DNA of 64,000 bases from a virus: the IMG/VR virus record IMGVR_UViG_3300042564_004498, positions 62,001-126,000 of that record; one strand, 5' to 3'. Of this stretch, positions 17,925 to 39,632 are shown piece by piece. The position numbers and the translations under genes were made by a program. The notes under the pieces were generated by a model. That model was not told the origin of the DNA. It searched no databases and worked only from the letters and a program-made list of their open reading frames with translations. Every line of letters begins with the position of its first letter. The stretch's first letter is position 1.

Positions 17925-18776
17925 ATGAGCGAAAAATTACAAAGACTATCAATAAAAATGGCGGAATTATTCCCCAAAGATGCTTCATCACCTCAAGTAT
18001 ATTATGATTTATTTAAAGACATATACAAACAACAAAAAGACTATTTTTTTAATTTTGACCCATCAGATATTATTAAATTAATATTCTACATATACTCTTA
18101 CAACAAAACAAATAATTTTAAGTTAGCCGATTTAATGTTAAACAAAATAGGGTTTGCTAGTTTATTTATAACTCAAGGAGATAATTACCTTGAAACTTGT
18201 TCAGATTGTGGTGGTAATGGTGAAGTGGATTGTAGTAGTTGTGACGGGTCAGGGGAAGTAGAATGTGATGAATGTTATGGTACAGGAGAAGTAGAATGTG
18301 ATGAATGTCTTGGTAGTGGGGTAGATAGCAATAACCCAGAAGAACAATGTTCTGAATGTAATGGTTCAGGTGTTAGAACATGTGGTTCATGTCACGGAGA
18401 TGCTGAGTTAGATTGTGACAATTGTAATGACGGAAAAGAACTTTGTTATAGTTGTGATTCAACAGGTGAGATTGAAACCGATAAATTATTATATGACTAT
18501 TATGTTATTTGTACTTGGGACACATTTATTAAGGACCGATGTGAATTAAGAGCTGAGACCCTTGAACCAGCTTTATCTGAATATGATTTTGATAGATTAA
18601 GAGACGATTTTATTGTATTAGGATATCAAGAATCTTATCAAAGATTTATTGACGGAATACAAACTAACGAAGTTTATTGTTCCAACTATAGTGATGAACC
18701 AGAATTACATAAAAGTTATTCATCAGATTATAAAATTTGGATGGATGATAGTGATATGATACGATACGAAGGATAA
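17925..18776 (+). CDS. DnaJ-type cysteine-rich zinc protein without a J domain
   Basis: 283 aa. Residues ~85-185 hold at least eight CxxC pairs, several in the C-x-x-C-x-G-x-G form (CSDCGGNGE, CDGSGEVEC, CDECYGTGE, CSECNGSG, CGSCHGD, CYSCDSTG). This is the zinc-binding repeat of type I DnaJ, here expanded beyond the usual four. No J domain or HPD motif is present. The N-terminal helical part and the acidic C-terminal part are unassigned. It may bind unfolded protein or nucleic acid. It follows the previous gene by two bases. Confidence 0.8.
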   Translation: MSEKLQRLSIKMAELFPKDASSPQVYYDLFKDIYKQQKDYFFNFDPSDIIKLIFYIYSYNKTNNFKLADLMLNKIGFASLFITQGDNYLETCSDCGGNGEVDCSSCDGSGEVECDECYGTGEVECDECLGSGVDSNNPEEQCSECNGSGVRTCGSCHGDAELDCDNCNDGKELCYSCDSTGEIETDKLLYDYYVICTWDTFIKDRCELRAETLEPALSEYDFDRLRDDFIVLGYQESYQRFIDGIQTNEVYCSNYSDEPELHKSYSSDYKIWMDDSDMIRYEG

Positions 18777-20264: not shown

Positions 20265-20296
20265 AAAAAAAGGTGTTACATCACTGTAACACCTTC
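20265..20296 (-). terminator. strong terminator of the large RNA
   Basis: Eleven-base perfect stem AAGGTGTTACA / TGTAACACCTT with a four-base loop, followed on the minus strand by seven T. It marks the 3' end of the transcript coming from 21253. Confidence 0.9.
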
Positions 20297-21253
20297 TTGG
20301 CTAATACGATGAGAATACTCGTCTTATTGAGAATCTTTAGAAGGATTATTGTTTCCCTTCGTTTCCACTATCTTTTGGATAGTAATCCTCATTGCCGATT
20401 AGTTAGACTAATCACTCCTTAAGGTAATAACCACTCTCTTACTACTCTACTCTCTTCAACCTTGCGAGCTAACTCAGGATTCGACTCCTTAGAGGTTTTT
20501 GGTAAAAATACGATTGAACTTGGGATTCTTTCGTGCCACGGACCGCCCGTGACTGTGTAGGCAACTTTCGTTATCACCTGACGAACACTTTTCCGTTTTT
20601 CTGTTAGTTTTTCACCTATTGAAAAGTTTGGTTTGTGTTGTGGATGAGTCCAAGTAGAGGTCCGTCTTAGGCTTCGTTATCTTTTGAACAACAAAATACC
20701 TGTCTACTCGGTGAGATATCCCTATCTCCATATTTTAAGATTACTTCAAACGAACACCTTGGTAGATGTTTTGTAAGGTTAGTAGCGACACCACTCGTTC
20801 TCTAACTTACCTTTCGGTTTTAAGTCCCCTCTCATATTGGAGTCCGCAATAATATTGTTGGAACAATATTTTTTGCTTGACCCCTGTGACTTATTCTTAT
20901 TGTTTTTCCAAACTCAGTTCAGGAACCCACATTCCCAAACCATCCAACCACTTTCCCTAAAGCGTCGCCCTCAATACTCAAGGTCGGATGATATGTCACT
21001 TGTATACTCGAGTTCCATTTCTGAAACCGCAATCCTGTTAACACAACAGGTTCACTTTATCCCCCTTTCGAGGTTTATTTGACGACCATATACAGCCGAT
21101 TATCGTTTATTAAATTAGTCTCAATGTCAACCCGAAGGTCTTGATATCAACATCTAAATGGATAATAATATTTTCAAAGAACGTAATTCATATTAATGAA
21201 GGAAAGGTCAACCTTACCGAAGTGGGATTTTAACCCTTCCTTCATTTCAATTG
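20266..21253 (-). ncRNA. giant structured non-coding RNA (~0.99 kb), GOLLD/ROOL-like by context
   Basis: No convincing ORF on either strand and visibly less AT-rich than its surroundings. Many local hairpins are visible, for example at 21193-21245 (AATGAAGGAA / TTCCTTCATT enclosing two smaller stems), CCTGTT / AACAGG near 21027, AATATTGTT / AACAATATT near 20850, CACGG / CCGTG near 20537, GATTAG / CTAATC near 20396, ACTATC / GATAGT near 20370 and GATGAG / CTCGTC near 20310. A promoter (21259-21289) and a strong terminator (20265-20296) define a minus-strand transcript. Large ornate RNAs of the GOLLD and ROOL classes are known from phages, often beside tRNAs, as here. Membership is not proven; a new class is equally possible. 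Confidence 0.8.
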
Positions 21254-21258
21254 TTTTA

Positions 21259-21289
21259 CAAAGGTAGATGAAAGTTTTGACACTGTCAA
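21259..21289 (-). promoter_or_regulatory. promoter P1 of the large RNA
   Basis: Minus-strand TTG (21287-21289), 20-base spacer, TACCTTTG (21259-21266). Transcription would begin near 21253, right at the first long hairpin. Confidence 0.7.
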
Positions 21290-21393: not shown

Positions 21394-21424
21394 CAAAGAT
21401 AAGAAAGTTTTTTTGAACTGTCAA
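21394..21424 (-). promoter_or_regulatory. promoter P2
   Basis: TTG-N20-TATCTTTG on the minus strand (TATCTTTG at 21394-21401). The ~35-base sequence around it is nearly repeated at P4. Confidence 0.65.
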
Positions 21425-21531: not shown

Positions 21532-21562
21532 CAAAGATATGAATAACTTTTCAATTAATCAA
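21532..21562 (-). promoter_or_regulatory. promoter P3
   Basis: TTG-N20-TATCTTTG on the minus strand (21532-21539), downstream of the tRNA genes. The ~100 bases that follow to P2 contain no ORF. Confidence 0.65.
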
Positions 21563-21590
21563 ACACTTTTTAAAACTTTTTTTTAATTAG

Positions 21591-21663
21591 TAGCGGGAGA
21601 AGGACTCGAACCTCCGACCTTATGGTTATGAGCCACACGAGCTGCCAACTGCTCTATCCCACG
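21591..21663 (-). tRNA. tRNA, anticodon CAU, initiator-like
   Basis: 73 nt cloverleaf on the minus strand: acceptor CGTGGGA / TCCCGCT with an unpaired first base, D arm GAGCAGTTGGCAGCTC, anticodon loop CTCATAA, T arm GGAGGTTCGAGTCCTTC. The unpaired 1-72 position and the D arm resemble initiator tRNA-fMet, but only two of the usual three G-C pairs close the anticodon stem. The 3' CCA is not encoded. Confidence 0.85.
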
Positions 21664-21678: not shown

Positions 21679-21749
21679 TGCGTAGGGCCGGAAACGAACC
21701 GACTTGGACTGGCTTATGAGACCAGTGAGATACCTTACCTCCCCCTCGC
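21679..21749 (-). tRNA. tRNA, anticodon CAU (elongator Met or Ile2)
   Basis: 71 nt on the minus strand: acceptor GCGAGGG / CCTACGC with one mismatch, D arm GAGG...TCTC, anticodon stem CTGGT / GCCAG with loop CTCATAA, T stem GTCGG / CCGGC with TTCG. Anticodon CAU: Met, or Ile if the C is modified to lysidine. CCA not encoded. Upstream of the initiator-like tRNA in the same transcript. Confidence 0.85.
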
Positions 21750-21837: not shown

Positions 21838-21868
21838 CAAAGATAGGAAAGTTTTTTTGAACTGTCAA
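21838..21868 (-). promoter_or_regulatory. promoter P4 of the tRNA transcript
   Basis: TTG-N20-TATCTTTG on the minus strand (21838-21845). Confidence 0.65.
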
Positions 21869-38520: not shown

Positions 38521-38697
38521 ATGGAAACAGTTGAAGGACAAATTATCGAAGAACAACCTAAAGAAGGATGTAAAAAATGTAATCAAAAACCAACATCAAG
38601 AAGACAGTATGCAACAATTGCTTTAGGATTTTATTTATTAAGTTCTGCAGTATATGGCACAATCGTTATGATTAAAAATTTAATTTCTCTTTTTTAA
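38521..38697 (+). CDS. small single-span membrane protein with CxxC
   Basis: 58-aa ORF below the size cut-off. Starts METVEGQIIEEQPKEGCKKC (CxxC), then a positively charged stretch, and a hydrophobic helix (TIALGFYLLSSAVYGTIV). Its last codons overlap the stop of the DnaJ gene on the other strand. Leaderless behind a TATTTAT box. Confidence 0.6.
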   Translation: METVEGQIIEEQPKEGCKKCNQKPTSRRQYATIALGFYLLSSAVYGTIVMIKNLISLF

Positions 38698-39632
38698 TCA
38701 ACTCGTTCAAACTTAACATTTAATTTAACATACATATCACCACCATTATATCCTTTATTTTTAAGTCTTAATGGTTTTGATGTGTCAAATAATTTAGGCG
38801 ACGCCATCTGTAAATCACCATCAGGATGTGGTATTAAAAATTTGTCTTTTTGAACTTCTTCTAAGTTGAGGTATAGATTATAAATTAAATCATTATTTAT
38901 TTTTTCATACCCGTCTTTTGGTACCATTTGTATTTGAAGAATCAAATCCCCATACTCACCATTTTTAAAATCTCCGGCATTGGCAACTTTTAAATATTGT
39001 CCATCATCAACCCCTTTAGGTAATGTCACATTAATTTCATTTGCCACAGATTTTATACCATTTCCACTACAATTATAACATTTATGTATTAGGGTGTATC
39101 CTCTTCCAGCACATGTTGGGCATGTTTGTCTAACTTGTTGTGTCATAAATCCAGTACCAAAAACTTTAACTTGGAACCCTTGTCCTTTACAAGTTCCGCA
39201 AGTTTGTTGGTCACCACCTTTTCCATTACAAGGTTGACAATGATTATCCTTAACATAACGAATAGTTTTTTGAATACCTTTGTAAGACTCTATTGGAGAC
39301 ACCATCACCTTAACAATTTTGTCAGGAGCGTTTTTTCTCATAGGTTGTTGTCTAGATTGTTGAGATGCCCCTCCAAACATTTGGTTAAACATATCCTGAA
39401 ATGACGAACCACCCCCGCCGCCAGCAAATGGATTATTTTTGGCTTGGTCGTATTGTGTTCGTTTACCCTCATTACCTAAGGTGTCGTAAGCTTCCGCAAT
39501 ATCTTTAAATTGTTCAGCGCCTTCAGGATTTATATCCGGGTGATATTTCTTAGAGAGGGTTCTGTATGATTTTTTAATCTCATTTGCAGACGATTTCTCT
39601 TCAACTTCTAAAATTTTATAGTAATCTTTCAT
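38694..39632 (-). CDS. dnaJ: DnaJ molecular chaperone
   Basis: 312 aa. J domain with MKDYYKILEVEEKSS and YHPDINPEG (the HPD motif that stimulates DnaK), a Gly-rich linker (GGGGGSSF), four C-x-x-C-x-G-x-G repeats (CQPCNGKGG, CGTCKGQGF, CPTCAGRGY, CYNCSGNG), and the C-terminal substrate-binding domain (LPKGVDDGQ, GDLILQIQM). A type I DnaJ slightly shorter than the bacterial ~370 aa form. It would work with host DnaK to fold phage proteins. Phage-encoded DnaJ with all domains is uncommon. Confidence 0.92.
   Translation of the reverse strand: MKDYYKILEVEEKSSANEIKKSYRTLSKKYHPDINPEGAEQFKDIAEAYDTLGNEGKRTQYDQAKNNPFAGGGGGSSFQDMFNQMFGGASQQSRQQPMRKNAPDKIVKVMVSPIESYKGIQKTIRYVKDNHCQPCNGKGGDQQTCGTCKGQGFQVKVFGTGFMTQQVRQTCPTCAGRGYTLIHKCYNCSGNGIKSVANEINVTLPKGVDDGQYLKVANAGDFKNGEYGDLILQIQMVPKDGYEKINNDLIYNLYLNLEEVQKDKFLIPHPDGDLQMASPKLFDTSKPLRLKNKGYNGGDMYVKLNVKFERVD

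What the first reader, a model, noticed from the sequence alone, without database searches (positions are those of the whole stretch)
20266..21253. Giant structured non-coding RNA beside tRNA genes
About 1 kb with no plausible gene, visibly less AT-rich than its surroundings, full of stable hairpins, with a promoter at one end (21259-21289) and a perfect 11-bp terminator at the other (20265-20296). Large ornate RNAs (GOLLD, ROOL) are known in phages and often lie next to tRNAs, as here. I cannot match it to either from memory, so it may be a new or divergent class.
Basis: partly seen in the sequence, partly recalled or inferred. Interest (0 to 1): 0.92.

Follow-up and report, generated by a model that had tools for sequence, protein, structure and literature searches.

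The report
GOLLD cage RNA in a phage
The 1-kb gene-free stretch encodes a GOLLD RNA, a known giant phage RNA family whose solved member assembles fourteen copies into a hollow RNA cage, so it is a well-conserved new member of a known family and not a new class.

Summary
Window 20306-20711 (minus strand) matches Rfam GOLLD (RF02032) end to end: 323 bits against a cut-off of 150, E 9e-92. No ROOL match. The RNA runs from about 21252 to 20266: an unconserved leader, a 5' domain (21098-20713), a 3' domain (20711-20306) and a terminator (20298-20267). Its promoter is of Bacteroidota type, one of four near two CAT tRNAs. Some 64 viral contigs carry homologues; 37 non-redundant full-length ones (58-79% identical to the window) support both domains: 95% of cells paired, 162 of 222 pairs with compensatory change. 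They also support pseudoknots and two contacts that are intermolecular in the solved GOLLD 14-mer: L20 with J13/15 complementary in 37 of 37, and L21a palindromic (GC or CG) in 37 of 37. A cage is strongly implied but not shown. Function is open; action on the translation machinery is my best guess. Side observation: 36 GOLLD-bearing phage contigs carry a tmRNA gene, 33 of them convergent with GOLLD within 3.3 kb; the window's own lineage lacks it.

The parts
20266..21252 (-). Predicted GOLLD primary transcript (about 987 nt)
   Evidence: Promoter, terminator, Rfam match; ends not measured
21259..21289 (-). Bacteroidota-type promoter TTG-N20-TACCTTTG of GOLLD
   Evidence: same element upstream of nearly all relatives
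21115..21252 (-). Leader, poorly conserved, with a strong hairpin near its 5' end
   Evidence: Conservation; fold
20713..21098 (-). GOLLD 5' domain (cap domain in env-38), not covered by the Rfam model
   Evidence: 96.4% of cells paired, 83 of 112 pairs with compensatory change in 37 sequences
20306..20711 (-). GOLLD 3' domain
   Evidence: RF02032, 323.2 bits, model 1-416; 94.2% of cells paired, 78 of 108 pairs compensatory
20595..20639 (-). Variable linker, inside the cage in env-38; no tRNA inserted here
   Evidence: Low conservation, weak hairpin, no tRNA
20593..20594 (-). J13/15 side of bridge B7 (GG)
   Evidence: Complementary to 20523-20522 in 37 of 37 sequences, three classes
20522..20523 (-). 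L20 side of bridge B7 (CC)
   Evidence: As above
20481..20485 (-). Loop L21a, self-palindrome (CG type here), bridge B8 in env-38
   Evidence: GC in 25, CG in 12 of 37 sequences
20663..20666 (-). Pseudoknot strand GACG, pairs with 20583-20580 (CGUC)
   Evidence: 100% paired, all 4 pairs compensatory
20580..20583 (-). Pseudoknot strand CGUC
20560..20564 (-). Pseudoknot strand UUGCC, pairs with 20396-20392 (GGCAA)
   Evidence: 98.4% paired, 3 of 5 pairs compensatory
20392..20396 (-). Pseudoknot strand GGCAA
20267..20298 (-). Intrinsic terminator, 14-pair stem
21394..21424 (-). Further promoter of the same type, upstream of GOLLD
21532..21562 (-). Further promoter of the same type, upstream of GOLLD
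21838..21868 (-). Promoter of the same type, upstream of the tRNA pair
21590..21663 (-). tRNA, anticodon CAT
21679..21749 (-). tRNA, anticodon CAT

Best explanation
The stretch encodes a full-length GOLLD RNA of a phage with Bacteroidota-type promoters. Shown here: it belongs to the GOLLD family, both domains are under selection for structure, and the bases of two inter-subunit contacts of the solved GOLLD are kept complementary. Inferred from the solved homologue env-38: the RNA is transcribed from host-type promoters during infection and assembles without protein into a hollow homo-oligomer, probably a 14-mer cage, with the variable linker inside. Guess, about 35% likely: the cage acts on the translation machinery (ribosomes, tRNAs or related RNAs) in infected cells by holding or sheltering it.
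For: Rfam RF02032, 323.2 bits, all 416 model positions, E 8.8e-92. Every tested relative not cut by its contig end also passes the cut-off. Domain sizes of about 386 + 406 nt match env-38's 420 + 413. 95.2% of cells paired and 162 of 222 pairs compensatory in 37 sequences. B7 bases complementary in 37 of 37 with three sequence classes; L21a palindromic in 37 of 37 in two classes. tRNA neighbours, host-type tandem promoters. The published 14-mer, rise in expression during lysis, and ribosome pull-down are reported or cited in PMC12286853.
Against: No expression or assembly data for this RNA. The translation role rests on neighbourhood and on a pull-down cited by others.
Confidence: 0.97

Rival explanations
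1. A new class of ornate RNA, or an RNA only loosely resembling GOLLD.
For: The Rfam model covers only the 3' 406 nt; the 5' 386 nt have no Rfam label.
Against: Full-length model match at twice the cut-off. The 5' domain is always joined to the GOLLD 3' domain in relatives, and a 5' domain of similar size belongs to env-38.
Confidence: 0.02
2. GOLLD serves a non-translational role, such as enclosing a metabolite, a stress protein or a nuclease during lysis, or displaying its linker.
For: The published cage is empty apart from its linker, and its authors list such cargos. The window's lineage has no tmRNA.
Against: Recurrent neighbourhood of tRNA and, in other lineages, tmRNA genes; ribosome pull-down cited in PMC12286853.
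Confidence: 0.5
3. The element is a decayed, unexpressed remnant.
For: None beyond the lack of expression data.
Against: Pairing is intact across both domains, with an intact promoter and terminator; 29 of 34 contigs of the same lineage keep GOLLD.
Confidence: 0.02

Closest known systems
GOLLD env-38 RNA (833 nt, solved 14-mer; PMC12286853)
   Same: Two domains of like size, variable linker, L20-J13/15 and L21a contacts, position downstream of a CAT (Met) tRNA
   Different: L21a carries CG where the Rfam consensus carries GC, and B7 is GG/CC where the Rfam consensus carries GC/GC; a leader of about 140 nt precedes the core; assembly not measured
GOLLD RNAs of Lactobacillales prophages and mycobacterial tRNA clusters (PMC6582537)
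   Same: Same family, next to tRNA genes, phage-linked
   Different: There a predicted or pseudo tRNA lies inside the RNA; none here
ROOL RNA
   Same: Large phage RNA near tRNAs whose solved member forms a hollow cage, an octamer
   Different: Unrelated sequence and structure; no Rfam ROOL match in this stretch even at E up to 1

Membership tests
GOLLD (RF02032) | Covariance-model match above the gathering score | tested here: met
   323.2 bits against 150, full model
GOLLD (RF02032) | Conserved 3' domain joined to a separate 5' domain, 800 nt or more in many members | tested here: met
   Both domains conserved and covarying, core about 793 nt, transcript about 987 nt
GOLLD (RF02032) | Variable linker between the domains' contacts | tested here: met
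   20639-20595 is the least conserved part of the core
GOLLD (RF02032) | Phage or prophage origin, near tRNA genes | tested here: met
   Virus record, two tRNAs within 500 bp
GOLLD (RF02032) | L20 with J13/15 kissing (bridge B7) and L21a palindrome (bridge B8) | tested here: met
   37 of 37 complementary; 37 of 37 palindromic. Mapping onto env-38 numbering is mine
GOLLD (RF02032) | Assembly into a 14-mer cage | not testable with these tools
   Needs biophysics
GOLLD (RF02032) | Expression rises during lysis | not testable with these tools
   Needs RNA-seq
ROOL | Covariance-model match | tested here: not met
   No match at the gathering score or at E up to 1

The most novel reading that the evidence does not exclude
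GOLLD is a working part of a phage translation kit: in one set of phages its gene is paired head-on with a phage tmRNA gene, and the cage handles ribosomes or translation RNAs during infection; in the window's lineage tRNAs alone take that place.
Probability: 0.2. Interest if true: 0.75.

Novelty: new member of a known kind. Interest (0 to 1): 0.33.

Why it matters
GOLLD has a solved cage structure but no known function. A clade of some 64 contigs, with strong covariation in the 5' domain that Rfam lacks and in the inter-subunit contacts, argues that the cage matters in nature and provides an alignment for extending the Rfam model. The convergent tmRNA neighbour in other GOLLD phages is a concrete, testable pointer towards translation.

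Tried and rejected
New RNA class: rejected by Rfam. ROOL: no match. tmRNA as an obligate partner: rejected, 0 of 34 contigs of the window's lineage have one and the window's record has none. L21a and L21b loop types as a set chosen to avoid cross-kissing: the types go together in 36 of 37, but largely by descent, L034 breaks the rule, and no mechanism is claimed. Bacterial genomes: pattern 1 found nothing, and the six hits of pattern 2 hold no GOLLD. Plasmids: none. Nearest phages by protein: only SbcC-like matches at 22-28% identity and none for a tail-like protein, so the host guess rests on promoter type alone. Small RNAs between the tandem promoters (21532-21430, 21394-21292): I found no conservation outside the promoters except in a near-identical contig. 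A structured linker: hairpins somewhat more stable than shuffles on average (-3.07 against -2.06, sd of the set mean 0.21), but the sequences are related and the effect is small.

Full report
WHAT IS THERE. The window is bases 62001-126000 of a 145,525-base virus record. The stretch 20266-21253 is richer in GC (38-41%) than its immediate flanks, has no sizeable ORF, and as minus-strand RNA folds 7 standard deviations better than 20 dinucleotide-preserving shuffles. It ends in a 14-pair terminator at 20298-20267. Upstream lies TTG-N20-TACCTTTG at 21289-21259, the form of Bacteroidota promoters (my own knowledge, not tested here). Two tRNA genes with anticodon CAT lie further upstream on the same strand.

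IDENTITY. cmscan of the whole window gives GOLLD, RF02032, at 20306-20711 minus, 323.2 bits (gathering 150), E 8.8e-92, all 416 model positions; the alignment shows nearly all model pairs kept. No ROOL match appears in this stretch even at E up to 1. The record has one copy. The Rfam model covers only the 3' domain, so about 500 further bases of the transcript carry no label.

RELATIVES. Two conserved motifs found 34 and 33 stretches of viral contigs, three of them shared. GOLLD was confirmed in 24 of 24 records and 36 of 41, one copy each; the five misses are contigs that end inside the RNA. Two huge phages (642 and 635 kb) also carry it, as does an Acinetobacter phage within a tRNA cluster, where the RNA is not annotated. 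Thirty-seven non-redundant full-length sequences, 58-79% identical to the window, align from about 21115 to 20296 with few gaps; the sequence between promoter and 21115 aligns poorly. The conserved core thus has a 5' domain of about 386 nt and a 3' domain of 406 nt; the solved env-38 GOLLD has 420 and 413 (PMC12286853).

STRUCTURE. RNAalifold on the 37 sequences gives about 40 helices. Over 222 nested pairs 95.2% of cells are paired, against 78% when partners are dealt out anew and 39-43% when partners are slid by 1-3 columns; 162 pairs show compensatory change, 83 of 112 in the 5' domain and 78 of 108 in the 3' domain. The structure was derived from the same alignment, which inflates the comparison with slid versions, and the sequences are related. 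A covariation scan for pairs outside that structure found GACG/CGUC (20666-20663/20583-20580), UUGCC/GGCAA (20564-20560/20396-20392), a 5' hairpin 21098-21095/21086-21083 whose loop pairs with 21009-21002, a single contact 20363.20315, and 20593.20523; their counts are.

CONTACTS BETWEEN SUBUNITS. In env-38, L20 kisses J13/15 of another chain (B7), and L21a kisses itself (B8) with a dinucleotide that switches between GC and CG (PMC12286853). I mapped these by position in the Rfam alignment. The B7 bases are complementary in 37 of 37 sequences in three classes: GC/GC 23, GG/CC 12 (the window), UC/GA 2. L21a is GC in 25 and CG in 12 (the window), and a tree of the rest of the RNA implies several switches. 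Adjacent bases of one short loop cannot pair with each other, so this supports a homo-oligomer, with the caveat that the mapping to env-38 numbering is mine.

EXPRESSION. Four TTG-N20-TAnCTTTG sites lie on the minus strand between 21868 and 21259, out of nine on that strand in the whole record; a reversed control pattern matches once. Nearly all relatives have such an element upstream of GOLLD, often two or three in tandem. Inferred: strong expression by host-type RNA polymerase. Not shown.

FUNCTION. Nothing here shows a function. GOLLD is near-universal in the window's lineage: of 34 contigs encoding the neighbouring DHH-like protein, 29 carry GOLLD. Genes for a DNA methylase, the DHH-like protein and a DUF192 protein stay near it in many contigs. 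tRNAs are common neighbours. Other GOLLD contigs carry a full-length tmRNA: 16 of 27 records and 20 of 41. By my reading of those coordinates against, 33 of the 36 tmRNAs lie on the opposite strand, on the 3' side of GOLLD, within 3.3 kb, in several cases with a gap of about 120-155 bp. The sets are not dereplicated. The window's lineage has none (0 of 34), so the pairing is lineage-bound. The held papers with both words report no such pairing in the passages I read. Together with the ribosome pull-down cited in PMC12286853 this tilts me towards an action on translation, at about 35%.

NOVELTY. A new member of a known family. What is added: covariation support for the 5' domain of this clade, covariation of inter-subunit contacts in a further set of sequences, the promoter arrangement, and the tmRNA neighbour.

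Noticed in passing
L061:1717-2086, L034:5117-5532, and 34 further records: A full-length tmRNA gene lies near GOLLD in 36 viral records, in 33 of them convergent with GOLLD within 3.3 kb. None in the window's own lineage.
   Followed up: partly
L003:2861-2953, L005:1474-1564, L009:2686-2777, L015:5918-6009, L021:2855-2946, L024:147-238, L027:5634-5724, L034:7565-7656: Tightly related 91-93 nt tRNA-like genes with an extra hairpin in the D arm and an odd anticodon loop, 250-1100 nt upstream of GOLLD; ARAGORN calls them Thr, Pro or unknown.
   Followed up: partly
L036:4760-5143 (PX050566.1): An unannotated GOLLD (207 bits) within the tRNA cluster of Acinetobacter phage vB_AciJM_313.
   Followed up: no
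20455-20490 and aligned loops: Loop types L21a and L21b change together in 36 of 37 sequences (CG with CGCAA, GC with GGCA); L034 is the exception.
   Followed up: partly
20639-20595 and aligned linkers: The linker, disordered in the solved cage, tends to hold a short hairpin about 12-14 nt from its start, with changing sequence.
   Followed up: partly
17925-18776: A 283-aa protein with many CxxC repeats weakly resembling the DnaJ zinc domain, with no J-domain match; a full DnaJ-like ORF lies at 38694-39632.
   Followed up: no
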